From a virus, in IMG/VR virus record IMGVR_UViG_3300033149_001571, positions 1 through 64,000 of that record: DNA of 64,000 bases; one strand, written 5' to 3'. Of the stretch, positions 5,752-63,791 are shown piece after piece; the first letter of the stretch is position 1; every line of letters starts with the position of its first letter. A model generated the notes under the pieces. It saw only the letters and a program-made list of their open reading frames with translations, did no database searches and had not been told where the DNA came from. A program made the translations under genes and the position numbers.

Positions 5752-7232
5752 GCGTTCCAAATCCATGCCCCACGACGTAGGGCGAGCCGGTCCCTCTTAC
5801 GCGCCTGAGCCTCTTCGGCTTCGGCTTCGCGTTCTGAATAGTCTACCCCGCGGGGGAAGTGTCGCGAGACGATCTCCGTAGCTTCTTCGACGCTCGCGGG
5901 ACGCACGCGGAGAAGCTCCATACGCGCCGCCTGTAGCGCCTCGGAGTGTGCGTCCACCTTCTCCCCCGAGAAGACCACGCGATCGAATCTCCGCGCGTCT
6001 CGCTTGAATCGCCATAGGCGATCCGCTACCGCCTTCGGACTCGCGAGCGTGAAGAACTTAGGGGGGCGCTTCGTTCGCTCGTACTCTTCATCCCACGCCC
6101 ACGCGAACCACTCCCACGCGCTTACGCCTTCGCCGCGAAGGTGCTTCGCCGCCTCCGCGATTGAATCGACGCGCTTCCCGGGGCCGCCGTTGTACCGGCG
6201 TCCAGTGTGGCGCAGATAGACCGCGCCCCACGCGAGCGCCATAGCGTCCGCGAGCGCCTTCGCTTCATCCTCCCGGGGTAGCAGCGGCGGGGGCGGGTGC
6301 TCGTACCGTGGACGCGGTGAGACGCTCTCCACGACCGCCCACACCTCCGGGGACGGAGACCACGCGCCGGGAACCACGAGCCGATCACGACCGAAGAGAC
6401 ACCCGGCGCGGACTCCATCCGGCGCGGAGCCGTCCCTGTGGAATCGGAGCGATCGCCCCTCTTCCGGGGCCCGCTTCGTCTGGCGCTCTGAGAGCCTCTC
6501 TAAGAGCCTCGAAGCGGTGCCCGGGTCCGCTGGTACCTCTGGAATGCTAGGAACGCTCTCCGGCTCTACTGGGTGCCCTCCCGCCGCTGTATCACTCTCA
6601 GGGTCGGAGACGCCCGGGGGGCGGAGCCCCTCGGGCGATTCTATGGATTCTTCCGGCTCTAAAGAATCGGTGCCAGATTCTTTATTTTTATTTCTTGCTC
6701 TCTCTCTTGCTCTTGCTCTTGGCTTCGAGGGGGCATCAGAACCGGTTTCGTACCCCCTTCGATGCCCCTTCGATGCCCCTTCGATGGGGCTTCGATGCCC
6801 CTTCGATGGGGCTTCCGCTTCGATGTTCCATGGCTCCCCGTAGCGATCGAAGAAGCGCAGGTAGAGCGCACTCGATTTAAACGGTGCGATCTGTTTTACG
6901 ACCCACGGCCGGCGGCGGTCTCCATCCTTGAGAGTCTCCCCCACCTGAAAGCGACCCATCTCGCGGATCCACACAAGCGAAGCACCTTCGTCACGCTCTA
7001 GAAATCCGATCCCTTCGAGCACCTCTAACGCCTTCGAGATCTTGGATTCATCCAGCCCGGTGTCCGTGCTCGCATACGGTAGCGGGAGCCGGTAGAGCCC
7101 GGTGGCTTTCGCGTGGGGGCACGAGATCAGATATAGCGCCACGAATCCCACGATGGGCCCGGCGTCTCGCATCGCGCGGCCGGTCTCACCCACCCAGAAC
7201 TCCGGGGCGATCTTCGAGTAGTCTCGGCTCAC
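5748..7232 (-). CDS. Winged-helix replication initiator-like protein
   Basis: Encodes about 494 residues. The N-terminal ~115 residues (RDYSKIAPEFW ... SKISKALEVLEGIGFLERDE) look like a winged-helix domain of the kind found in phage replisome organisers. A low-complexity Ser/Pro/Arg linker (~130-260) is encoded over the phased CTTCGATG repeats and an AT-rich tract. The C-terminal ~200 residues are helical (WEWFAWAWDEEYERT) and may bind the helicase. Start is GTG at 7232 in a GTGA overlap with the upstream RHH-like gene. A longer open frame to 7373 exists but its first 47 codons lie inside that gene. Position immediately before the DnaB-like helicase and the repeats inside the gene suggest an O-like initiator. 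The family assignment is inference. Confidence 0.8.
   Translation of the reverse strand: MSRDYSKIAPEFWVGETGRAMRDAGPIVGFVALYLISCPHAKATGLYRLPLPYASTDTGLDESKISKALEVLEGIGFLERDEGASLVWIREMGRFQVGETLKDGDRRRPWVVKQIAPFKSSALYLRFFDRYGEPWNIEAEAPSKGHRSPIEGASKGHRRGYETGSDAPSKPRARARERARNKNKESGTDSLEPEESIESPEGLRPPGVSDPESDTAAGGHPVEPESVPSIPEVPADPGTASRLLERLSERQTKRAPEEGRSLRFHRDGSAPDGVRAGCLFGRDRLVVPGAWSPSPEVWAVVESVSPRPRYEHPPPPLLPREDEAKALADAMALAWGAVYLRHTGRRYNGGPGKRVDSIAEAAKHLRGEGVSAWEWFAWAWDEEYERTKRPPKFFTLASPKAVADRLWRFKRDARRFDRVVFSGEKVDAHSEALQAARMELLRVRPASVEEATEIVSRHFPRGVDYSEREAEAEEAQARKRDRLALRRGAWIWNA
6675..6697. other. AT-rich tract beside the phased repeats (possible unwinding element)
   Basis: A run of mostly A and T (agattctttatttttattt core) interrupts otherwise GC-rich coding DNA, about 60 bases from the CTTCGATG array and followed by a pyrimidine-only CTCTCTCTTGCTCTTGCTCTT stretch on the plus strand. 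It encodes the KNKNR-type linker of the initiator-like protein. In lambda-type origins an easily melted AT-rich tract lies beside the initiator-binding iterons. Assignment as an unwinding element is inferred from that analogy. Confidence 0.5.
6757..6825. repeat. Six CTTCGATG iterons, five phased at 11 bp; candidate replication origin
   Basis: CTTCGATG starts at 6757, 6768, 6779, 6790, 6801 and 6818, giving spacings of 11, 11, 11, 11 and 17 bases. Two copies sit in inverted repeats GCCCC-TTCGAT-GGGGC (6775-6790 and 6797-6812). Because 11 is not a multiple of 3, the repeat passes through all reading frames of the host gene, so the conservation is at DNA level rather than protein level. One repeat per helical turn places every site on the same DNA face. 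The array lies inside the initiator-like gene, as oriLambda lies inside gene O. Origin function is inferred. Confidence 0.7.
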
Positions 7233-7456: not shown

Positions 7457-7465
7457 GCTCTCCAC

Positions 7466-7494
7466 TTACGCGGGAAAACTAAACCACGAAAAAA
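7466..7494 (-). promoter_or_regulatory. Promoter-like T-rich element before the replication block
   Basis: On the minus strand, GTTTTTTCGTGGTTTAGTTTT directly follows the terminator hairpin and ends about 20 bases before the RHH-like gene. The T6-CGT-TTTAG order matches the elements near 13925 and near the left edge of the window. The T-run doubles as the terminator's U-tract. No CGATT box or leader hairpin is present here, so this is the weakest member of the set. Confidence 0.3.
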
Positions 7495-7523
7495 CCCCGC
7501 CGAAGCGCCACACTCCGACGGGG
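7489..7523 (-). terminator. Rho-independent terminator between SF2 helicase and RHH-like genes
   Basis: Minus-strand hairpin with an 11-bp stem (CCCCGTCGGAG against CTTCGGCGGGG, two G-T wobbles), a 7-base loop TGTGGCG and an immediate T6 run. It lies 66 bases after the stop of the SF2 helicase gene and would separate the 7589-10114 genes from the replication block. The loop sequence is identical to that of the terminator at 12534-12566. Confidence 0.85.
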
Positions 7524-7588
7524 AAGAAAGACCGGACGAAGACGCTCGTCCGTATGTGTGTTCGTTATGGTCTGCGCCTGCGCGGCTG

Positions 7589-9034
7589 TCAAGTGTCGGA
7601 CCATAGGTCACGCACCACGACGCAGTTGAACCCCTCGCGGCGCATCGCTCGGATTCTCTCCTTCGCGTGAGCGTGTAGCCACCGGTTACCCTTGTCCCCG
7701 ATATCGTAGACGATGAATCGATTCTTTCCGTCTGTACGTCGGGAGCCTCTCCCTACTTGCTGGAGAGTCTCGATTACCGATTTCCCTCCGGCCGCGTTGA
7801 TCACGGTGCGAAGCTCCGGGACGTTCACACCTTCCGCGAAGACCTTAGTAGAGATTATAAAATCGATCCGCGAGTCTTCGAGGCGAGCTAGAGCGGCGGC
7901 GCGTTGCTCCGTGTCTCGGTTCCCGTCCACCACTTCCACGTTGATACCTGCCGCGCGTGCTAGGTCTCGAAGCGTCCGCGCGTGCTCGATACGACGGACG
8001 AAGACCATACCCGGGCTCTCTCCGTCCGCGAGTGTCTTCCGCATCGCTTCCACCACGAGACGATTCCTAGGCTTAGAAGACACGATTAACTCTTCGTAGA
8101 CCTTCCGGTAATCTCCTTCGCTCTCTGGGCTCGCTCTCTGCTCTAGGGGGAGAATCCGTATCTCCGGCTCTGAGAGCATCCCGGCGTCTATCAACTGCCG
8201 CGCGGAGATCTCGTACTCGATAGGACCGATCGCCGCTACCGCCATAAGCGAGCGGCGGTCCCCTCGATCGAAGGGAGTACCGGAAAGACCTACGCGGTAG
8301 GTCGCTCGGGAAAACTCCCGGATGGTCTCGTAGAAGCTACGAGCCGGGGCCGTGTGGCACTCGTCTACGATCACCCCGTCGATTGAGCGGGCTAGGTCTG
8401 CGAAGCGCTGGGAGCCTCTCGCGCGGTGGAGTGTCTGTAGGGTGGAGCACGTGAGCCGCTCGCCTACCTCCCATCGTCCAGCGCCCACGAATCCCGCCGG
8501 CGGTTCGTCGGTCGCGAGCGTCTCCCACCGCTTCGCTACGTCGTCGGCTAGGTTCCCGCGGTGGACGCAGAATAGCCACCGCCCCGGGATCGCCTTCGCT
8601 ATCGCTACCGCTACTCTCCCCTTCCCTCCGCCGGTCGGGATCTTGATTACCCCTCGCCCGTACAGGCTCGCGTTCACGGTAGCCGCTACGATCGCGTCCA
8701 CCTGATACGGCCTCATGGTTAGGGGCTCCGCTCTGAGTCTCTCCGCGAGCGCCTCCGGGTCCGCTAGGGTCTTCGTCCTATGGTCGGAGATAGCCAGCCC
8801 CATGTTCTGAGACTGAGCCCCCTTAGCCACGAGAGGGATTAGACCTACCGGGAGCGTCCCTCTCTTGCGCGAGAATAGACGGATCCGGGTAGGGCCCCCG
8901 TAGTAGCCCATCCGCTCGCGTCGCTTCGCTTTCGTATCCTCGAAGCTCACGAATTCATCTAGCCACGAGAGCGCCTCTTCACTCCCCGTCACTCGTGCTT
9001 CGCTCCCGTTCTCGATTACGATTCTAAGATTCAT
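7589..9034 (-). CDS. Superfamily 2 DNA/RNA helicase (UvsW/DEAD-like)
   Basis: A 481-residue SF2 helicase. After an N-terminal extension of ~105 residues, the motor reads QxxR-like RPYQVDAI, motif I PTGGGKG (133-139), motif II DECH (224-227), motif III SGTP, then the second lobe with GMVFVRRIEHA, STKVFAEGVNVPEL and motif VI QQVGRGSRR. In motif I the residue after the Lys is Gly instead of the usual Ser/Thr. Related phage enzymes remodel recombination or stalled-fork intermediates. ATG has AGAGGG about 6 bases upstream and overlaps the methyltransferase stop by 11 bases. It is the last gene before the 7489-7523 terminator. Confidence 0.92.
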   Translation of the reverse strand: MNLRIVIENGSEARVTGSEEALSWLDEFVSFEDTKAKRRERMGYYGGPTRIRLFSRKRGTLPVGLIPLVAKGAQSQNMGLAISDHRTKTLADPEALAERLRAEPLTMRPYQVDAIVAATVNASLYGRGVIKIPTGGGKGRVAVAIAKAIPGRWLFCVHRGNLADDVAKRWETLATDEPPAGFVGAGRWEVGERLTCSTLQTLHRARGSQRFADLARSIDGVIVDECHTAPARSFYETIREFSRATYRVGLSGTPFDRGDRRSLMAVAAIGPIEYEISARQLIDAGMLSEPEIRILPLEQRASPESEGDYRKVYEELIVSSKPRNRLVVEAMRKTLADGESPGMVFVRRIEHARTLRDLARAAGINVEVVDGNRDTEQRAAALARLEDSRIDFIISTKVFAEGVNVPELRTVINAAGGKSVIETLQQVGRGSRRTDGKNRFIVYDIGDKGNRWLHAHAKERIRAMRREGFNCVVVRDLWSDT

Positions 9035-10124: not shown

Positions 10125-10970
10125 TTAGTCCTCGTCTTCGACTAGAAGCGCGTGAGCCATCGTAGCTTGCGTCTGAGAGAGCCGGGCGCGTAGCTCTGGG
10201 AGCGCGCGAGACAGGATCCCCTCGTAGGTCTCCACCTTGCTCTGTGCCTTCGTGAGCGCGTCCACCTTGCTCTGGATCGCGCGCTTGCCCGCGTCTGCTA
10301 GTCCCTTCTTCTGGGTAGCGATCACGGTATCGATCTCGTCTACCACCGCGTCTAGGACGCCTTCCAGAACCCCCTCCGTCTTCATGGCGGGGATATCGGA
10401 GTAGAGCTTGTGGCCCGTCACCTCGCGGAACACGGTAGCCCACGAGCGCCACACGTCCACGCTACCAGCGGGCACGAAGTAGAAGCCTCCGCCGGGGCGA
10501 ATGCTCACCGCGTCCAGACGATGAAGAAGAAGCCGCGGGAGCCATAGCGAGAGATCTTCCGCTACGTAGGTCTCTCGGTAGTGGTCGAAGCCCGCGAGCA
10601 CACGAGCCGCGTCCGGGTGCTCCGGGTCCGATACCATCGGGGAGCCGCTCTCGCGGTCGTACCACGCTCGGAGACCCTCCGAGAATCGTAGGTCGCGCGT
10701 CTCCGTCTCGCCTACCGTAACGACCACATAACCCCCGCGGGGGTGAGCCTCTACGCGCCGGCTTCGGCCCGTCGCGAGAGCGTCCACCGCCCGGCGGATC
10801 GCTCGCTTCGGGCTCGGGTCTTTCGGCAGAATTGAAGCGTCCAGCCCGTGACGCTTCGCCGCTTCTCGGAGAGCTTCTACGCTCACCTCCCCGGAGAGAC
10901 GCCAGTAGGCGAAGACGCCGGTGACGCCGGGGATATCTTGATTCGTTCCCGTGATCCTGAATTCTCGCAT
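10125..10970 (-). CDS. DUF6744-like protein of the MoxR/VWA module
   Basis: About 281 residues. The N-terminal section (FRITGTNQDIPGVTGVFAYWRLSGEVSVEALREAAKRHGL) and a later 'GGGFYFVP' region resemble the phage DUF6744 family as I remember it. The C-terminal third (AVVDEIDTVIATQKK ... ELRARLSQTQATM) is a predicted long coiled helix. ATG at 10970 follows AAAGGAAATC. The frame stays open upstream through the 16-bp repeat array, but that extension is repeat-encoded and has no ribosome site. It is the third gene after the MoxR-like ATPase and the metallopeptidase/VWA gene, suggesting a shared job. That job is unknown. Confidence 0.75.
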   Translation of the reverse strand: MREFRITGTNQDIPGVTGVFAYWRLSGEVSVEALREAAKRHGLDASILPKDPSPKRAIRRAVDALATGRSRRVEAHPRGGYVVVTVGETETRDLRFSEGLRAWYDRESGSPMVSDPEHPDAARVLAGFDHYRETYVAEDLSLWLPRLLLHRLDAVSIRPGGGFYFVPAGSVDVWRSWATVFREVTGHKLYSDIPAMKTEGVLEGVLDAVVDEIDTVIATQKKGLADAGKRAIQSKVDALTKAQSKVETYEGILSRALPELRARLSQTQATMAHALLVEDED

Positions 10971-10982
10971 GTTCGATTTCCT

Positions 10983-11078
10983 TTCGTGTGTTCGTTGGTT
11001 CGTGTGTTCGTTGGTTCGTGTGTTCGTTGGTTCGTGTGTTCGTTGGTTCGTGTGTTCGTTGGTTCGTGTGTTCGTTAG
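10983..11078. repeat. Six tandem 16-bp repeats between the VWA and DUF6744-like genes
   Basis: The unit TTCGTGTGTTCGTTGG (plus strand) is repeated six times without error except the last two bases of the final unit, which merge with the VWA stop codon. Each unit is itself two similar 8-mers (TTCGTGTG and TTCGTTGG). The array fills nearly all of the gap between the VWA stop (11075) and the ribosome site of the next gene. It may be a protein-binding array, an mRNA element, or simple slippage expansion. Length polymorphism between relatives would be expected. Confidence 0.9.
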
Positions 11079-12445
11079 CGGGGGATCTTGATCTCCTGCC
11101 CCCATGAGACCGGAGCCTTACAGTCCGGAGTGATCAGCCAAATCGTGGGGACGCTGGGAGCCTTGCTCGGAGCCGGGCCCCCTCCGTCCGTCGCCACGAT
11201 TACGAGATCCGGGCGCGTCTTACCCTTCGCGCTCTCGGCCTTCTCGAAGATGGGGACGAAGTTAGTACCGCCCCCGCCCGTGAGCATATCGCGGACCATG
11301 GCGAGCGCGGCGGAGCGTGCTCGGGGGAGCTTCACGGGCTCGCCTTGCACCTTCGTATCACACGCGAGCACGTACACCTCCGCGGCGGCTCCGGCGACGG
11401 CTAGAAGGTTCCCCACGGCGTGAGCGTGGTCCTCTGGGCTCATGCTGCCGGAGGTGTCCACGGCGTACCACACGCGGGCCTTCTCGCTCTCGTAGGTGGC
11501 GCGGATAGGGTTCCGCGGGTGCGAACCCATGCACGCTTGCCGGCGGTGGGGGCGGCGGTAGGTCTTACGACCGCCGGCGGCGCGGCGTACCACGGCTCCG
11601 GTCTTGCGTCGAAGGACGGCGGCCCACGAAGTGACGGGGGGAGCCAGACGGCCGTCCGCCCACACGGAGAGAGAGCCCGCGAGACCGCCGGCGGCCTTAT
11701 CGGCTGCCGATTGCTTCGCGATCTCCCGAGCGCAAGCGTCCCGGGCGGATTCCATCTCGCTGTCCGTCACCTCCGAGATCTTCGAGCCGTGAGCGTCTGT
11801 AGAGCCCGTATCCGGCTCGCCTTCCATCTTCTCGCCCCCTGCACCCTCGCCACACTCTCCCGAGCACGGTTGCGGCTCTCCGTCGCTCTTACGGGGCTCC
11901 CCGTTCTCGTCGGTGGCGGTAGGGTCTTCGGGGAGGAGATCGTAGATCTCCGCGGCGGACATTTTCGGATCGTGGGGGATCTTCACCTGCGAGCCGTCCG
12001 CCCCGGTGAACGTGGTCGCGGGGTACTTCGCGGAGCCCGTGTCCGGGAAGATCCCACACGAAGGAAGCTCCCACCCGGCGGCCACCAGCATCCCGTTGAT
12101 TCGGAGATCGCAAGCGATGTTCCAGCGGCGCGGGCAACGGTCGCCGCGGTGGTGTACGTCCTTAAGCATGATGTGGAGACACTCGTGGGCGAGCACTCCG
12201 GCGATCACCTCCACACCTTCGGCGCGAGCGAACTTGATCGCGCACCGCGGATCGAAGAAGAGGCGATTACCAGCGTTAACGCCGGCGGTGCCGCATGGGG
12301 CCCACACACATCCGGCCTTCACGAGAATCGGCGCGATGTAGGCTCCGCGGACGCGGAAGATTATACGAGCCTCGCTCATGATCTCACGGGCCTCTGCGAG
12401 GAGATCGGGAGCGAAGGTAGAAGGGGCGGTAGCGGGGGCGGTCAT
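11075..12445 (-). CDS. Metallopeptidase-like and VWA domain protein (DUF2201 type)
   Basis: 456 residues. The N-terminal domain has a zinc-peptidase-like HECLH (87-91) in VIAGVLAHECLHIML, followed by HHRGDRC and WNIACDLRIN, as in the putative metallopeptidase domain of DUF2201 proteins. An acidic linker (~180-240) leads to a C-terminal von Willebrand A domain with the metal-ion site DTSGSMS (~331-337) and a later GGGGTNF (third MIDAS-type segment). Such proteins pair with MoxR-type AAA+ ATPases as chaperone or metal-insertion systems. The partner gene is immediately upstream. It has its own promoter/leader copy. Whether the peptidase site is active is unknown. Confidence 0.88.
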   Translation of the reverse strand: MTAPATAPSTFAPDLLAEAREIMSEARIIFRVRGAYIAPILVKAGCVWAPCGTAGVNAGNRLFFDPRCAIKFARAEGVEVIAGVLAHECLHIMLKDVHHRGDRCPRRWNIACDLRINGMLVAAGWELPSCGIFPDTGSAKYPATTFTGADGSQVKIPHDPKMSAAEIYDLLPEDPTATDENGEPRKSDGEPQPCSGECGEGAGGEKMEGEPDTGSTDAHGSKISEVTDSEMESARDACAREIAKQSAADKAAGGLAGSLSVWADGRLAPPVTSWAAVLRRKTGAVVRRAAGGRKTYRRPHRRQACMGSHPRNPIRATYESEKARVWYAVDTSGSMSPEDHAHAVGNLLAVAGAAAEVYVLACDTKVQGEPVKLPRARSAALAMVRDMLTGGGGTNFVPIFEKAESAKGKTRPDLVIVATDGGGPAPSKAPSVPTIWLITPDCKAPVSWGQEIKIPR

Positions 12446-12462
12446 CGTTCGGTCTTCCTTGG

Positions 12463-12533
12463 GTCGGGCGGGAGTAGTGGCGGCCCGACTCTGGGAGATT
12501 AGATCAATCGTGGCGCGAGTACAACTAAAAAAC
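12463..12533 (-). promoter_or_regulatory. Promoter and leader hairpin of the VWA gene (conserved copy B)
   Basis: Minus strand order: T6 run (12527-12532), AGTTGTACTCG, a CGATTG box about 16 bases after the run, then a leader hairpin GTCGGGC-N13-GCCCGAC (12463-12489) and an AAGGAAGACC ribosome site before ATG 12445. Hairpin arms, the CGCCAC start of the loop and the ribosome-site region match the copies before the MoxR-like and DUF6011-like genes. Promoter activity is inferred; the hairpin is directly visible. Confidence 0.65.
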
Positions 12534-12566
12534 GGGGAGCGATGCGCGCCACACGCACCGCCCCCC
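12527..12566 (-). terminator. Rho-independent terminator after the MoxR-like gene
   Basis: Minus-strand 13-bp stem (12554-12566 with 12534-12546, two G-T wobbles), 7-base loop TGTGGCG, then GTTTTTTAG. It lies just after the MoxR-like stop codon (12574) and directly before promoter copy B, insulating the VWA gene from read-through. The heptaloop is the same as in the terminator at 7489-7523. Confidence 0.85.
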
Positions 12567-12573
12567 GGACCGA

Positions 12574-13833
12574 CTACTTAGATTTATTCGCTTTAGCCTT
12601 CGCCTTCGCCTTCTTCTCCGCCATGAGCACGGAGAAGAGCTTCTCCACGACGGGAGCGGCTTCCGTGATCTTATCGGGGCCGAACCCCAGCCCGTCCTTC
12701 GCGACGCTTCGAGACATCTCCCGGGCGTACTCGCGGACGAAATCCGCTCCGCCGTAGGGGCTCTCGATCACCCGGTCCGCGAGAGTCCACCACGCACGGG
12801 CGAGATCCTCCCGATCGTCTCCCGTGTAGCTGGCGAGGTATGTCACCGTCGCCCCGAGCACCGCGTGGGTCTTGTCGAATCGCTCCGTGGGCTCGTAGCT
12901 CTCGGGGTCCATGAGAACGCCGCGGGGGGCGGGAAGATCCTGATCTTGCCAGAAGGAAGCGAAGCGGGCGGCGAGACCCTCCGGGAGAGCGCAGTAAGCT
13001 ACGAACTCCATTTGACGGGGGGAGAGTCCGTGAATGATCCCGCCGGCGAGAGCGTGGATAAGATTCGTCCACGAGCGGACGGACGGCCAGCGGTAATCGT
13101 CGCCGTCGCTCATGGCGTGCGCGTCCGCCTCGAAGCGGTCTAGGTACTCTCCGACGATGGTAACCGCGGCGGAGTACGCCTCCGGCCACGCGGCGAGTAC
13201 CCGCGCCTCGATCTCCGCCACGTCTTCGCGAACGATCTCCCGCTGTAGGGAAGAGCGCCGCCAGTGTGTCTTCATGCTGCCCACGGAGGGCGGGACCCAG
13301 GGCACGTGTAGGAAGCGGTTCGCGGTAGGGGCCGCGAGCGTGTTCGCGTCCGCGGCACACTCGGGGGGGTTACCGATCGCGAAGATGCGGACGTGTCCGG
13401 CCACCTTCGTGTCACCGGCGAGACGCTCCGTAAGAAGCGTAAGCGCGGCGGCTTGCTTATGCTCTGCGACGGAGCCGAACTCATCTAGCCCGATGCAAGC
13501 GGACGCGGCGGCGTTCGCCTCTGCGAAGACCGGGCTGGGGAGCTTCGTCATAGCCGTGCGGGTCTTGTTAGGGACCCCGTAGCCGGCGATCTCTTCGGCG
13601 TCATGCTGAGCGAGGCTCATGGTAAGGGAGAGCCCGAAGAGCTTCGAGCCGATCTCCCGGGTGATACTGCTCTTCGCAGTACCGGGCTCTCCCCACACTG
13701 CGAAGGGGATACCCCACACGGTATCGGCACCGGGAGCGGTGTACGCCGGGGTGGTAAGGAAGCTACGGAGAACTTCGAGAACCTCGTCAGAGGTGAGGGA
13801 GTGGGAGAAGCAGAGGGTAGCGGTGTCGGTCAT
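12574..13833 (-). CDS. MoxR-type AAA+ ATPase
   Basis: 419 residues. Walker A GEPGTAKSS (48-56), Walker B IGLDEFGS (D117/E118), sensor-like IFAIGNPPE and an ANRF arginine-finger-like stretch identify an AAA+ ATPase of the MoxR/RavA group. These ring ATPases work with VWA-domain partners to remodel proteins or insert metals, and the next gene downstream encodes such a partner. The C-terminus is Lys/Ala-rich (KKAKAKAKANKSK). ATG follows AAGGAAAGACC and the conserved leader hairpin. The gene is monocistronic by the visible signals: own promoter copy and own terminator. The phage role of this pair is not established to my knowledge. Confidence 0.9.
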   Translation of the reverse strand: MTDTATLCFSHSLTSDEVLEVLRSFLTTPAYTAPGADTVWGIPFAVWGEPGTAKSSITREIGSKLFGLSLTMSLAQHDAEEIAGYGVPNKTRTAMTKLPSPVFAEANAAASACIGLDEFGSVAEHKQAAALTLLTERLAGDTKVAGHVRIFAIGNPPECAADANTLAAPTANRFLHVPWVPPSVGSMKTHWRRSSLQREIVREDVAEIEARVLAAWPEAYSAAVTIVGEYLDRFEADAHAMSDGDDYRWPSVRSWTNLIHALAGGIIHGLSPRQMEFVAYCALPEGLAARFASFWQDQDLPAPRGVLMDPESYEPTERFDKTHAVLGATVTYLASYTGDDREDLARAWWTLADRVIESPYGGADFVREYAREMSRSVAKDGLGFGPDKITEAAPVVEKLFSVLMAEKKAKAKAKANKSK

Positions 13834-13851
13834 CGTTCGGTCTTTCCTTGG

Positions 13852-13930
13852 GTCGGGCGGGGTTTGTGGCGGCCCGACACGGAGAACCTACGAGAAGAAT
13901 CGCCGGCTGGCAAGCTATAAAACGAAAAAA
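13852..13930 (-). promoter_or_regulatory. Promoter and leader hairpin of the MoxR-like gene (conserved copy A)
   Basis: On the minus strand a T6 run (13925-13930) is flanked on both sides by the 10-mer CGTTTTATAG. A CGATTC box follows 22 bases after the run, then GTAGGTTCTCCGTG, then the hairpin GTCGGGC-N13-GCCCGAC (13852-13878) and an AAGGAAAGA ribosome site. The block from GTAGGTTCTC to the ribosome site is nearly identical to the plus-strand copy before 62683. Transcription start is inferred to lie between the CGATTC box and the hairpin. Confidence 0.7.
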
Positions 13931-13957
13931 CTATAAAACGCCGTTTGGGTGGCGTTT
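13925..13957 (-). terminator. Terminator-like hairpin ending the long late operon
   Basis: Minus-strand perfect 7-bp stem AAACGCC/GGCGTTT with an 8-base loop (13936-13957), followed by TATAG and a T6 run. It is weaker than the other two terminators but stands in the same place: after the last gene of an upstream operon and directly before a promoter copy. It would close the structural operon that ends with the small gene at 14064-14312. Confidence 0.55.
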
Positions 13958-47159: not shown

Positions 47160-47972
47160 TTAAGTCCGTAGGGAAGAGATCCGGGGACGGACCGCGTTCG
47201 TATCCCGCTCCGTCTGGTAAGAGCCATCGCGGTCCGGGACTCCGATAGGCGGCGGCTCCGTCCGCGCGCCTTCCTGATCCGTTAGCGTAATCACGTACTG
47301 GAAATTCTCCGCGTCGTAGTAGGGGAGACTCGCGGGGGTGAAGCGCCCGGGGACCGAATTAGGATCGGAGGGGCACCGCTCGCGCCGCTCCACCTCGTAG
47401 AAGAATTCGACGTCTGGATCTCGCGTCCGGTCGTCGATGTACCCGAACAATTCGCGCCCGCTCACCTGAGCCGGAGAAATCTCCGTTAAGACGATATCTC
47501 CGCTTGCTCGCATCCCGGAGAACGAAGACTCCCAATCGATCGCGGCGGTGCTCGATACGAGCACGGGAAACAACTCCACCCGGCGAAGCTCTTCCGCCCG
47601 TTGCTTCCGGTCCCGCTTGCGCCACACGAGCCACACGCGATAGCCCCGGAGCCCTAGATCGTGGACGATACCCCGCGCCCCATCTACCGCCGTCTGTAGG
47701 CACACCCCGAGAGAGCCCACGAGATCCCCGTCTGTGTTCGGTACGTTCTCGGGACCCGGGCCGCATATCCCGGGGGCGGGTACGGGCTGCCCCGTCTGCG
47801 GGTCTATGACGGTCGTACAGTCGCCGCCTGCACAATCGGAGGGTACCCGCGCGGAGCATCCCTCGAAGCGGTTAGGGGCCGGCGCGCACGGATCGCGCCT
47901 AGGCTTCGAGCACGAACACGAGCCCGAACACGAGCCCGAACACGAGCCCGAACACGATCCGCACCCGCTCAA
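47160..47972 (-). CDS. Neck-region protein with Cys-Gly-Ser repeat N-terminus
   Basis: 270 residues. The first ~20 residues are a tandem GSCS repeat (seven Cys), with further paired Cys to residue ~50 and ~70. The rest has a strand-rich structural domain (LRGYRVWLVWRKRDRKQRAEELRRVELFPVLVSSTAAIDWESSFSGMRASGDIVLTEI ... NFQYVITLTDQ) likely to be a head-tail connector component. The start is TTG, sharing bases with the stop of the tiny upstream gene (TTGA). The Cys array could bind metal or crosslink. Confidence 0.7.
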   Translation of the reverse strand: MSGCGSCSGSCSGSCSGSCSCSKPRRDPCAPAPNRFEGCSARVPSDCAGGDCTTVIDPQTGQPVPAPGICGPGPENVPNTDGDLVGSLGVCLQTAVDGARGIVHDLGLRGYRVWLVWRKRDRKQRAEELRRVELFPVLVSSTAAIDWESSFSGMRASGDIVLTEISPAQVSGRELFGYIDDRTRDPDVEFFYEVERRERCPSDPNSVPGRFTPASLPYYDAENFQYVITLTDQEGARTEPPPIGVPDRDGSYQTERDTNAVRPRISSLRT

Positions 47973-54193: not shown

Positions 54194-56472
54194 TAGATCG
54201 GAGCCCCTTCCGAGAACGCTACGCCGGAGATGATAAGCGCCCACACGGTTACGTCTTGATTCGGCGCTCCGTCGTTGTCCATCTCGAACCGCACGAAGCA
54301 CAGATCGTCTTCGTAATAGCTTGATATCGAGAACGGGCCGAACTCCTGCTCGTGCGCGCGGTTGTCAAGCGTAGCAGGCAACGCCGCGCCGGCCGTTAGA
54401 TTCTGCGTATCGCTCTGTCCTGCTTTGGCGGTAAGTAGCTCGGTATTCGCCAACGTGCGCGGGACGGGTACAAGCCCTCCCGCGGGGTCGGCTACCCGCG
54501 CACCGCTAACCTGCGTCGGTAAAAACGAGAGGATGCCCTGCGGCGCGGCGGTAACAGGTTGCGAACCCTGTAAGGAGTACACCACCTTCATCGTGATCGG
54601 GTACGCCGTACAGATCCCGTCTTGTAGAGCGAACTGAAAGTAGATCGCGTCGCCGTTGTTATTCAGCCTCGCGTTCGGTGCGATCTGATTCCAGCCCGTG
54701 GGTAAGCCACCGGACCCCACCGGGATGTTACTAGTCACCACCCCGCCCGACTCACCAAAGATGTTGCCGCCCGCGCTGATCGTCGTGCGCCACAACGCGA
54801 GCCCGTGAGCCACGCGCTCGCCTTCTTGGTTGAACTCGCAATGCGACGGCGAGATCTTCATGCGCTCGAACGTGGGGCCCGTGGTGAGGTTCGACGTGAT
54901 ACGCACGCGCGCCCACCTGCCCTGAATCCCAGAGTGTGTTGTAACCGGCCACGCGGTACCGTCGGGTAGCACGGGGTCTGCGGTGCCGTTCCCGCCGAAG
55001 ACTCCGAACCGTATGTCCTCGCCCGTCGTTGCCGCACGAAGGAACACGTCCTCGCCGTACCGAAAGTCGGTCTCAATCGACACCGCCTGAAAGCCGACCA
55101 CCCGCCACGTATTCGCCGCTATGCGTACCTCGAAGACGTAGGAGCCGCCTGTGCTGCCGACGGTCTGGAACATCGCGATCCCCCAGTACGGTAGCGGCGT
55201 CCCTGCCTGATCGACGCGCGTAGTTGTGAACGCGATGGAGTGACCCGCCGTGGTGCCTTGGAACCCGAAGGTCGAGCCGCTGATACTCTGTGCCGCGGCC
55301 GTCTCTTCTACGAAGTTCGCACCATCTGAGCCGGGAGCCGCGGTGCCGTCCGTGGTGAAGACGCGCATCCCCTTCACGTAGCTTCTGCCGCGTCCCGCGT
55401 TTAGGGATGCTCCCTTCTCGGGAAAGCCGAATGACACCTCGGGGCCGAAGACGGTGAACTGTGGCCGCTCGATATCGCTTCCCTCTTGGAAGTGTGCGAT
55501 CTCGAAGTCTGACTGAAGCGCGGCGGGTGGGAACGAGTAATCAGACGAGTGTGATGTCGTAACCTGAAACAACGAGTTCACACCCGTGAGTCCGGGGTCG
55601 AGCAAGAAGTCGAAGCCGCCTGCACCGTGAACCATCTTGCCGCCGAACAACCCGACCGTCACGCCGTCGCTTTCGACGTGCACCATGTTCGTCGCGTTGG
55701 TTATGTTCACACCGAACACGAGCACGGTCGCATCGCCGTCTACCTCGATCGCGTCCACGATGTTCCCATTGCCTACATTGAAGTCGGCAAGCTGGAGACG
55801 CCCCGTGGTTCCCTCTGCTCTTACTCCCGTCGCGAAAGATCCCGCGGTCGGCGGGAAGTGAATGCCCTCGGCAGCGATGGTGCCTGCGGTCGTGAGCATC
55901 CCGATCCCGACACCGCCGTAATCGAAGCGAAGCTCTGCGGCGATGATCTTACCCAGGCCGGTCTTCTTCATCCCGATGCCTGCACCGGTCGAAGCGTCGC
56001 CCTGGAACTGTAGATCGTAGGCGGCGGCGGTTAGCGTTCCGCCGACGCCGTTATAGGTGAGGCCCGCGAATGACGAGGACGTAGGCACGCGAACCCGCAC
56101 ACCGCGGATCATCGCCTCATCCGAAAGCGTGATGCAGTCCGCGGCGGCGGCGTAGTCTCCGATGGTCGTGACTTCCCACGAGCCTTGACCGATGAGCGAC
56201 ACCCCGCTGGGTATAGTCAGCCCGCTCTCAACGTACACCCCGGGGCGCACGATCACCGTGTCACCTGATCCCGCTACCGCGAGAGCGGCGGATACGGTTA
56301 GGAACGGTAAGTCTTGCCGCCCGCTCGTTCCGGTCCCGTCGTCGCCATTAACCTCATCCACCCATACCGTGTTACCGGTAGGGATGGATGAGACCGCGCC
56401 GGAGATCGAATCGCCCGCTTGAAGCTGCTCGATCTCCCCGTCGGTCATGACGAGGGGAATCTTAACGGCCAC
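54193..56472 (-). CDS. Tail spike with beta-helix (pectate-lyase-like) domain
   Basis: 759 residues. The N-terminal ~22 residues (PLVMTDGEIEQLQAGDSI) are nearly the same as those of the next gene upstream, an anchor module. Residues ~35-290 form a right-handed beta-helix: VDEVNGDDGTGTS, LTVSAALAVAGSGDTVIVRPGVYVESGLTIPSGVSLIGQG, then repeated short strands. The C-terminal ~350 residues are beta-sandwich-like. Such spikes bind or degrade surface polysaccharide. CTAG occurs once in 2.3 kb, against about seven in the 1.5-kb terminase gene, so the body looks acquired from another source. GTG start. Confidence 0.8.
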   Translation of the reverse strand: MAVKIPLVMTDGEIEQLQAGDSISGAVSSIPTGNTVWVDEVNGDDGTGTSGRQDLPFLTVSAALAVAGSGDTVIVRPGVYVESGLTIPSGVSLIGQGSWEVTTIGDYAAAADCITLSDEAMIRGVRVRVPTSSSFAGLTYNGVGGTLTAAAYDLQFQGDASTGAGIGMKKTGLGKIIAAELRFDYGGVGIGMLTTAGTIAAEGIHFPPTAGSFATGVRAEGTTGRLQLADFNVGNGNIVDAIEVDGDATVLVFGVNITNATNMVHVESDGVTVGLFGGKMVHGAGGFDFLLDPGLTGVNSLFQVTTSHSSDYSFPPAALQSDFEIAHFQEGSDIERPQFTVFGPEVSFGFPEKGASLNAGRGRSYVKGMRVFTTDGTAAPGSDGANFVEETAAAQSISGSTFGFQGTTAGHSIAFTTTRVDQAGTPLPYWGIAMFQTVGSTGGSYVFEVRIAANTWRVVGFQAVSIETDFRYGEDVFLRAATTGEDIRFGVFGGNGTADPVLPDGTAWPVTTHSGIQGRWARVRITSNLTTGPTFERMKISPSHCEFNQEGERVAHGLALWRTTISAGGNIFGESGGVVTSNIPVGSGGLPTGWNQIAPNARLNNNGDAIYFQFALQDGICTAYPITMKVVYSLQGSQPVTAAPQGILSFLPTQVSGARVADPAGGLVPVPRTLANTELLTAKAGQSDTQNLTAGAALPATLDNRAHEQEFGPFSISSYYEDDLCFVRFEMDNDGAPNQDVTVWALIISGVAFSEGAPI

Positions 56473-56475
56473 GGA

Positions 56476-56946
56476 CTAGAGCTTAATTCGTCGGCGGATC
56501 ATGAGAAGAAGATCAGTCGAGTCGATAGCTTCTCCAAGCTCCACGACGTAGCGTGTAGCCGTGGTCGGGATAGATGCCTGGTCCACGACGCGGCCGGGGG
56601 CCGCATCGCTCAGGTAGTACTTCGTCCCCGCGGTGAGCCCGCCCGTAGTGCCTGCAACGGCATCCCACTCGGCGGTGGTCAGCGTGACCGTGCCGTTAAA
56701 AATCACGGTGCCGGTGTTCGTAGCGGTAACCGCCGTCGCGGAGAGCCCGGCTACCTCGCTGGTACCGCTTGCGGTTGCGTTAGCTTGATCGACGCTGCTC
56801 GCGCCGTCGATATAGACGGGTTCGCCTGCGATTACTGTAGAGGTAAAGGTAGCCTCATACGAATCGGGCTGGACGTCGATACTATCGCCAGCCTGAAGCT
56901 GCTCGATCTCACCGTTGGTTAAGACTAGAGGTTTCTTGATTGCCAT
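56476..56946 (-). CDS. Small fibre/decoration protein sharing the spike anchor
   Basis: 156 residues. It starts with the same anchor as the spike (GEIEQLQAGDSI). The C-terminal ~70 residues (LTTAEWDAVAGTTGGLTAGTKYYLSDAAPGRV ... RYVVELGEAID) match the C-terminus of the 56965-57513 protein, a compact beta domain of the head-decoration/fibre type. The gene is thus a bridge between the two neighbouring gene types and probably arose by shuffling. Confidence 0.7.
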   Translation of the reverse strand: MAIKKPLVLTNGEIEQLQAGDSIDVQPDSYEATFTSTVIAGEPVYIDGASSVDQANATASGTSEVAGLSATAVTATNTGTVIFNGTVTLTTAEWDAVAGTTGGLTAGTKYYLSDAAPGRVVDQASIPTTATRYVVELGEAIDSTDLLLMIRRRIKL

Positions 56947-56964
56947 GGTCTGATTCTTTCGGGG

Positions 56965-62580: not shown

Positions 62581-62664
62581 GCGTTTTTTAGTTTTTTAGG
62601 TTTGCGCTTATTCGATTCTTCGGGTAGGTTCTCTGTGTCGGGCCGCCACGAACCCCCGCCCGGC
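62581..62664 (+). promoter_or_regulatory. Promoter and leader hairpin of the DUF6011-like gene (conserved copy C)
   Basis: Plus-strand T6 run repeated (GTTTTTTAGTTTTTTAGG), a CGATTC box, GGTAGGTTCTCTGTG, then the leader hairpin GTCGGGC-N14-GCCCGGC (62637-62664) and an AGAAGGAAAGACC ribosome site. The stretch from GTAGGTTCTC to the ribosome site is nearly identical to that before the minus-strand MoxR-like gene. No plus-strand gene lies upstream for 20 kb, so here the T-run cannot serve as a terminator tail. Confidence 0.7.
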
Positions 62665-62682
62665 AGAAGGAAAGACCAGACC

Positions 62683-63762
62683 ATGTGCTACGAAGACGCC
62701 CCCGCTACCCGCCTCCTCGCCACTCACTGCACCATGTGTAGCCGCCCCCTCTTGGACGCTCAATCCGTCGAAGCGGGCATGGGCCCGATCTGCCGTAAGA
62801 AGTACGGCGCTCCGGCGCATATCGACGAAGAGAGCCGCAAGCGCGCCAATAAGCTAATCCACGAAGCCGCGGTGACCGAAGACCCCGCACGCATCCCGGG
62901 GATCGTTGCGGAGCTTTGCCTGTTGGAGTGTGACGTAGCCGCGGAGAAGCTCGCGGAGCGTTGCGGCGCTATCCGAGTCTCCCAGACGGAGGCCGGCTTC
63001 TTCACGGCCGTGAGCCCCTACGATCCGGGCTTCGTCGCCGCTTCCCGCTCGCTCCCCGGCCGCCGGTGGCTCCGCGAGGAGAAGGCGAACCGGTTCGCTC
63101 TCGAAGCCATCCCCGGCTTCGTCTCCGCCGCCCGTGAGGCGTACGGAGAGCGCACGATCATCCGTATCGATCGCGGAGACCGCTCCCCGATCTGGACGGA
63201 CTACGCCGGATTCTCGGGCTTCGCCTTCGAGAAGGCGGAGAAGCCCTTCTCCGCGGCGGCGTCGAAGGTCCCCGTCCACGTCCCCGCGAAGAAGATCGCG
63301 AAGCTCACGGGCTCCACGGAGTACGACCCCGCGGACGCTACGAGCCGCTCCGTAGCCGGTGCCGCTCTCGTGGGTGCGCTCGTATCCGGCGGCTTCGAGA
63401 AGGTGACGGACGCCCGCAAGCTCCCCCGCGGCTGCCGCGAAGAGGTGTACGAGATGCCCGTCTACCAGCGCCCCGGGAAGCCGGAGTGTGGTCACTTCGT
63501 ACAGGTGTTCTCTAGCGTCGTGGGTGACGGCTTCCGCTCGTGTGGGAAGGACGCGATCCGCGTCAAGAGCTTCGTCCGCTTCTGGTCTAAGAAGTCCGGA
63601 TCATGGGAGCTTCGCACGAAGACCGTGGGCCGTGGCCGCCGCGTCCACCGTACCGGGACGATCGAAGAGATCACCAATCGCACGGTGGAGCGCGCTCGGG
63701 ACTGCTACCGCGCCGCGATGGAAGACTACAAGGCGAACCTGGCTAAGCTGGTAAGCGAGTAG
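62683..63762 (+). CDS. DUF6011-like zinc protein
   Basis: 359 residues. The N-terminal CTMCSRPLLDAQSVEAGMGPICRKKYG (~16-42) is the treble-clef-like zinc motif of DUF6011 proteins. Residues ~90-155 (ERCGAIRVSQTEAGFFTAVSPYDPGFVAASRSLPGRRWLREEKANRFAL) resemble the small PYDP-FV-A-R-LPGRRW domain also seen beside SNF2/HARP-type helicases. The rest is unassigned with an Arg/Lys-rich end. ATG at 62683 follows AGAAGGAAAG and the conserved leader. The frame upstream to 62602 runs through the leader hairpin and is rejected. It shares its control element with the MoxR/VWA genes. Confidence 0.85.
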   Translation: MCYEDAPATRLLATHCTMCSRPLLDAQSVEAGMGPICRKKYGAPAHIDEESRKRANKLIHEAAVTEDPARIPGIVAELCLLECDVAAEKLAERCGAIRVSQTEAGFFTAVSPYDPGFVAASRSLPGRRWLREEKANRFALEAIPGFVSAAREAYGERTIIRIDRGDRSPIWTDYAGFSGFAFEKAEKPFSAAASKVPVHVPAKKIAKLTGSTEYDPADATSRSVAGAALVGALVSGGFEKVTDARKLPRGCREEVYEMPVYQRPGKPECGHFVQVFSSVVGDGFRSCGKDAIRVKSFVRFWSKKSGSWELRTKTVGRGRRVHRTGTIEEITNRTVERARDCYRAAMEDYKANLAKLVSE

Positions 63763-63769
63763 GAGACAC

Positions 63770-63791
63770 GAGGGGGGCTACGGCCCCCCTC
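63770..63791 (+). terminator. GC hairpin between the two plus-strand genes
   Basis: Perfect 9-bp stem GAGGGGGGC/GCCCCCCTC with a TACG loop, followed by TTCG rather than a T-run. It starts 7 bases after the DUF6011-like stop and ends about 15 bases before the next start. Without a U-tract it is more likely an mRNA-stabilising or leaky element than a full terminator. Confidence 0.45.

What the first reader, a model, noticed from the sequence alone, without database searches (positions are those of the whole stretch)
12463..13930. Conserved promoter-leader hairpin used at three operon heads (also 62581-62664)
The MoxR-like, VWA and DUF6011-like genes share a T6 element, a CGATT box, a GTCGGGC...GCCCGAC hairpin with loop beginning CGCCAC, and an AAGGAAAG-type ribosome site. 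Copies at 13852-13878 and 62637-62664 are on opposite strands and 49 kb apart, yet nearly identical from GTAGGTTCTC to the ribosome site. The hairpin just before the ribosome site suggests control of translation or mRNA stability of a co-regulated gene set.
Basis: seen in the sequence. Interest (0 to 1): 0.8.

Follow-up and report, generated by a model that had tools for sequence, protein, structure and literature searches.

The report
Shared 5'-hairpin leader in a phage
A phage puts the same short control cassette (a host-type promoter, an RNA hairpin that probably forms the very front end of the messenger RNA, and a ribosome site) before three separate genes, which suggests that these genes are tuned together at the RNA level, perhaps with the help of a small phage RNA.

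Summary
In detail: three, and only three, copies of a ~65-nt leader occur in the 68,356-bp virus contig, before an AAA/MoxR-like ATPase, a DUF2201/VWA protein and a DUF6011 protein. Each follows a sigma70-like promoter (TTG-N3, 17 nt, TANNNT). In all three copies the first stem base is exactly the 7th base after the -10, so the mRNA should begin with the hairpin. Between the two most diverged copies (VWA, MoxR), identity jumps from 40-50% to about 90% at this point and runs through the Shine-Dalgarno (SD) to codon 6. The conserved unit is therefore the transcribed leader, not the promoter. No relative carrying the leader was found, so covariation cannot be tested; one U-A/U-G change and a one-base loop insertion are all the evidence there is. 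A new lead is a possible ~70-nt sRNA at 7490-7559 (-). Its seed GGUCUUUCUU pairs with exactly these three SDs best of 73 genes, and its terminator top GUGGCG complements the invariant leader loop CGCCAC. The whole-genome null makes this suggestive only. Similar start-associated repeats are known in other phages.

The parts
12443..12489 (-). VWA (DUF2201) leader: stem GUCGGGC/GCCCGAC 12489-12463 with invariant loop start CGCCAC, SD AAGGA 12460-12456, ATG 12445-12443
12496..12524 (-). sigma70-like promoter of the VWA operon: TTGTAC, 17 nt, TAATCT; predicted +1 about 12489
   Evidence: third best intergenic site; matrix approximate, from memory
13831..13878 (-). MoxR-like (AAA) leader: stem 13878-13852, SD AAGGA 13849-13845, ATG 13833-13831
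13885..13913 (-). sigma70-like promoter of the MoxR-like gene: TTGCCA, 17 nt, TAGGTT; predicted +1 about 13878
   Evidence: second best intergenic site
13936..13957 (-). terminator-like hairpin upstream of the MoxR promoter, followed by a T-rich stretch
62637..62685 (+). DUF6011 leader: stem 62637-62664 (one U-A to U-G change), SD AAGGA 62667-62671, ATG 62683-62685
62602..62630 (+). sigma70-like promoter of the DUF6011 operon: TTGCGC, 17 nt, TAGGTT; predicted +1 about 62637; T-rich upstream stretch 62584-62597
   Evidence: weaker score, same register
11075..12445 (-). DUF2201 metallopeptidase-like/VWA protein, phrog_1314, distant relative of N4-like phage gp25
12574..13833 (-). AAA ATPase (MoxR-like), phrog_1297
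62683..63762 (+). DUF6011 protein
7490..7559 (-). candidate small RNA: hairpin 1 (7552-7533), mostly unpaired seed region with GGUCUUUCUU, terminator hairpin (7523-7495) with GUGGCG near its top, U6; complementary to the three leaders (inferred, not shown)
7564..7592 (-). sigma70-like promoter before the candidate small RNA: TTGACA, 17 nt, CATAAC
   Evidence: best intergenic site of the record

Best explanation
The element is a shared 5'-UTR cassette. A host sigma70-type promoter starts the RNA at the base of a 7-bp GC-rich stem, so each of the three mRNAs begins with a 5'-terminal stem-loop, with the Shine-Dalgarno sequence two bases behind it and left open. The terminal hairpin most likely protects the messages from decay that starts at a single-stranded 5' end (RppH/RNase E type, or the host's equivalent), and it holds the ribosome site in a fixed, accessible setting. 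The MoxR-like ATPase, its VWA partner operon and the DUF6011 operon would thereby be co-expressed and long-lived. Shown: copies, positions, promoter register, leader conservation. Inferred: transcription start, folding in the cell, stabilisation.
For: All three copies have TTG-N3 17 nt before TANNNT; the first stem base is the 7th base after the -10 in each. The MoxR and VWA promoters are the second and third best of all intergenic sites in front of genes. Between VWA and MoxR, identity is 12/30 and 3/6 just before the stem, then 7/7 (5' arm), 6/6 (CGCCAC), 7/7 (3' arm), 15/16 (SD and spacer) and 16/18 (codons 1-6), falling to 8/21 after that. Inside the leader the differences lie mostly in the mid-loop. 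The stem forms in all copies (pair probability about 0.9-1.0). The only stem change is U-A to U-G. SD accessibility is 0.57, 0.62 and 0.70 against a gene mean of 0.49. 5' structure hinders RppH and RNase E and stabilises mRNAs (PMC3997798).
Against: The stem is hardly more stable than shuffled sequence of the same composition (z -0.6 to -1.3) and is not an outlier among this phage's upstream regions (ranks 8, 12 and 15 of 73). No covariation could be tested. A simple protective hairpin does not explain why CGCCAC in the loop and GACC after the SD are invariant. No transcription start is known, and the host and its decay enzymes are unknown.
Confidence: 0.45

Rival explanations
1. The leader is the target of a phage-encoded antisense small RNA made from 7490-7559 (-), either from its own promoter or as the 3' end of the VWA-helicase operon. 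Its seed GGUCUUUCUU covers the SD and its terminator top (GUGGCG) touches the leader loop (CGCCAC), shutting down the three genes together. This can coexist with a stabilising hairpin.
For: With accessibility counted, the three leader genes rank 1, 2 and 3 of 73 translation starts, all through the same 10-bp seed; VWA keeps the 10 pairs despite a deletion. For pairing to the three SDs alone, 7543 (-) is the best of 45,461 non-self windows. Hairpins with GTGGCG in the loop exist at only two places, the terminators after MoxR and after the VWA operon. The region has the best intergenic promoter-like site, folds very stably (z -4.4) and ends in a U6 terminator. The leader covariance model matches it in antisense, in the same order (17.3 bits).
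Against: When pairing anywhere in the leaders is allowed, the full RNA ranks only 100th (sum) or 33rd (weakest target) of 6,809 genome segments. With raw duplex energies the three are not the top targets. In the best fold GUGGCG is partly paired. The region was found after looking, and it may simply be an eroded inverted copy of a leader. The weak Rfam SorX match is chance level (13.7 bits against a cut-off of 46.6).
Confidence: 0.25
2. The inverted repeat is a DNA operator at +1 to +27 for a phage or host repressor that switches the three promoters together; the hairpin in the RNA is incidental.
For: Perfect 7-bp half-sites about 20 bp apart overlap the predicted start of transcription. Start-associated inverted repeats of Cluster K phages were judged more likely to be DNA sites (PMC3203893).
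Against: Half-site spacing differs (20 and 21 bp); conservation extends through the SD, its spacer and, in MoxR and VWA, into codons 1-6, and includes an asymmetric loop half; the one change breaks DNA symmetry but keeps the RNA pair; no isolated copy without an SD exists.
Confidence: 0.2
3. The copies are the product of past duplication or recombination and are alike by descent, with nothing selected beyond promoter and SD.
For: MoxR and VWA are neighbours and share also the first six codons; MoxR and DUF6011 share much of the promoter (20/30).
Against: Flanks have diverged to 40-50% in the VWA-MoxR pair while the leader stayed at about 90%, and changes inside it avoid the stem and CGCCAC.
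Confidence: 0.1

Closest known systems
SAS/ESAS repeats of Cluster K mycobacteriophages and Cluster EF Microbacterium phages (PMC3203893, PMC7302621)
   Same: Unusually conserved SD-region sequence before a subset of genes; in Cluster K about half have inverted repeats just upstream
   Different: Other sequence; 10-19 copies rather than 3; Cluster K ESAS departures do not support RNA pairing, here pairing is kept
18-bp inverted repeats 14-22 bp before starts in Cluster EG Microbacterium phages; 17-bp repeats of Cluster O (PMC7302621, PMC4351075)
   Same: Short inverted repeats in front of phage genes
   Different: Short spacers (2-3 nt), more copies, Cluster O repeats not tied to starts, no shared SD and promoter register described in the passages read
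5'-terminal stabilising stem-loops such as ompA (reviewed in PMC3997798)
   Same: Predicted hairpin at the mRNA 5' end with an open SD behind it
   Different: No RNA data here; sequence, loop and SD flank are also conserved between genes
Autoregulatory 3'-UTR sRNAs OppZ and CarZ (PMC7398697)
   Same: Candidate RNA at 7490-7559 lies at the 3' end of an operon whose first leader it could pair with
   Different: Phage, three targets, possible own promoter, additional loop-loop complementarity; RNA not shown to exist

Membership tests
Start-associated sequences (SAS/ESAS) | 13-bp consensus GGGATAGGAGCCC (K) or GGGAAAGGACCCC (EF) at the ribosome site | tested here: not met
   The conserved site reads AAGGAAAGACC
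Start-associated sequences (SAS/ESAS) | conserved repeat tied to starts of a subset of genes, with an inverted repeat upstream | tested here: met
   three genes, inverted repeat two bases before the SD
5'-terminal stabilising stem-loop | stem within 0-2 nt of the mRNA 5' end | tested here: inconclusive
   predicted from promoter register only
5'-terminal stabilising stem-loop | longer mRNA half-life that depends on pairing | not testable with these tools
   needs RNA experiments
Known RNA family (Rfam 15) | match above the gathering score | tested here: not met
   no match in the window; SorX-like match at 7489-7560 far below cut-off
N4 early hairpin promoter | 5-7 bp stem with 3-nt loop upstream of the start site (from memory) | tested here: not met
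   loop is 13-14 nt and lies downstream of a sigma70-like -10
Intrinsic terminator/attenuator | stem followed by a U-run | tested here: not met
   the stem is followed by CCAAGGA or AGAAGGA

The most novel reading that the evidence does not exclude
The phage encodes a ~70-nt antisense RNA (7490-7559, minus strand) that recognises one shared leader in three mRNAs at two points, loop to loop (GUGGCG with CGCCAC) and seed to SD (GGUCUUUCUU with AGGAAAGACC). This would be a small phage RNA regulon, with negative feedback on the VWA operon whose 3' end gives the RNA.
Probability: 0.25. Interest if true: 0.75.

Novelty: new variant of a known kind. Interest (0 to 1): 0.5.

Why it matters
Repeated start-associated sequences occur in several phage groups and their function has stayed open. 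Here the position relative to the promoter, the intact pairing and a candidate antisense RNA make RNA-level function directly testable. The shared leader also links a DUF6011 protein of unknown function to a MoxR/VWA pair of the kind found in N4-like phages.

Tried and rejected
Relatives: blastn of the MoxR/VWA region and of the DUF6011 leader, and tblastn of several proteins in 'phages', found no close relative; VWA matched at about 25% in N4-like and similar phages, TerL and DNA polymerase only distantly. TerL gave one near-identical fragment of 7 kb, one 82% contig of 18 kb and one 43% contig of 91 kb; none of the three carries MoxR, VWA, DUF6011 or the leader, but the first two are fragments. 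Both genome-contig scans: the protein scan found nothing, and the pattern scan gave five hits without the promoter block, taken as chance. Covariation: impossible with three copies. Hairpin as terminator: no U-run. RNase III site: a 7-bp stem is too short (own knowledge). Defence-system models: no match. Rfam: no match at the gathering score.

Full report
What was checked. The finding names a hairpin shared by three operon heads. A matrix of promoter plus hairpin scores 54-63 bits at the three and 12 at the next site; the 44-nt inverted match between the MoxR and DUF6011 copies has a chance expectation near 6e-10.

Anatomy. Read in the direction of the gene, each copy is: a T-rich stretch; TTG-N3; 17 nt; TAATCT or TAGGTT; six bases; GUCGGGC; CGCCAC and 7-8 further loop bases; GCCCGAC (GCCCGGC in DUF6011); two bases; AAGGA; 10-11 bases; ATG. 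The fixed 17-nt spacer is kept although the spacer sequence of VWA matches the others at only 5-6 of 17 positions. By a sigma70 matrix (approximate frequencies from memory) the MoxR and VWA promoters are the second and third best intergenic sites in front of any gene; the DUF6011 one is weaker. Transcription should start at or within two bases of the first stem base.

What is conserved. VWA and MoxR are the informative pair. Upstream of the stem they agree at 12/30 and 3/6 positions; from the stem on at 7/7, 6/6, 1/3, 3/4, 7/7, 2/2, 15/16 and, in codons 1-6, 16/18; then 8/21. The conserved block therefore starts at the predicted first transcribed base and ends inside the coding region. That is what a functional 5' UTR would give, and not what a promoter or a DNA operator alone would give. 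The only stem difference is U-A to U-G; one loop has an extra base. With three copies this is not a covariation test.

Corrections. The T-runs before MoxR and VWA directly follow terminator-like hairpins at 13957-13936 and 12567-12533, so they probably end the preceding transcript. Only DUF6011 has T-runs without a called terminator. Thus MoxR looks monocistronic, and VWA heads a run of genes to the helicase that ends at the terminator 7523-7495. CGATT is aligned between MoxR and DUF6011 only. The hairpin is not unusually stable for this GC-rich genome; its case rests on position and conservation, not on energy.

Genes. VWA: DUF2201_N plus DUF2201 (Pfam), phrog_1314, about 25% identical to proteins of N4-like phages. 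MoxR-like: AAA, phrog_1297. Third: DUF6011. Other genes show a phage with a baseplate wedge protein, portal, terminase and DNA polymerase. No isolated phage in the collection is close.

A candidate partner RNA. The covariance model of the leader also matched 7499-7541 on the strand opposite to the local genes (17.3 bits). On the minus strand this place is an intergenic unit: TTGACA-17-CATAAC, the best intergenic promoter-like site of the phage, then about 70 nt with two hairpins and U6. The stretch between the hairpins is complementary to the leader SD. For SD pairing it is the best non-self window of 45,461, and with accessibility the three leader genes are ranks 1-3 of 73. The terminator top contains GUGGCG, the complement of the invariant loop CGCCAC; the only other hairpin of this kind is the MoxR terminator. 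Against this, a null over 6,809 segments, in which pairing to any part of the leaders counts, puts the full RNA at rank 100 or 33, and GUGGCG is partly paired in the best fold. Because the leaders resemble each other, ranks 1-3 are not three independent hits. The match could be an eroded inverted copy of a leader. I give it one chance in four.

Comparison. Conserved start-associated sequences with inverted repeats are known from Cluster K mycobacteriophages and from Microbacterium phages of clusters EF and EG, with unknown function (PMC3203893, PMC7302621); Cluster O repeats are not tied to starts (PMC4351075). The consensus sequences differ, so this is not a member of those sets; it is the same kind of thing with RNA pairing kept. 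5'-terminal hairpins that impede RppH and RNase E are established in bacteria (PMC3997798). The feedback idea resembles OppZ and CarZ (PMC7398697).

Verdict. Observation confirmed; interpretation partly supported. Most likely a 5'-terminal hairpin leader that sets stability and translation of three co-expressed units. Whether a phage small RNA acts on it is the question worth an experiment.

Noticed in passing
10967-11092 (-): Tandem 8/16-bp repeats (ACGAACCAACGAACAC) directly before the SD and start of the DUF6744 gene and reaching the end of the VWA gene; may tune expression or vary in length.
   Followed up: no
7457-7588 (-): Intergenic unit with TTGACA promoter-like site, two hairpins and U6, possibly a small RNA gene.
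   Followed up: partly
12533-12567 and 7495-7523 (-): The two strong minus-strand U6 terminators share the top GUGUGGCGC although their stems differ.
   Followed up: partly
63770-63791 (+): Nine-bp GC hairpin with UACG loop between the DUF6011 gene and the next gene, just before GGAGG; the predicted accessibility of that ribosome site is very low.
   Followed up: no
11075-13833 (-): MoxR/VWA pair like that of N4-like phages in a phage with a baseplate wedge gene, hence probably a contractile tail.
   Followed up: partly
6746-6815 and 47907-47966: Short tandem repeats of 11 and 12 bp.
   Followed up: no
56410-56477 and 56884-56951: A 68-nt direct repeat, 78% identical, spanning the starts of two neighbouring genes.
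   Followed up: no
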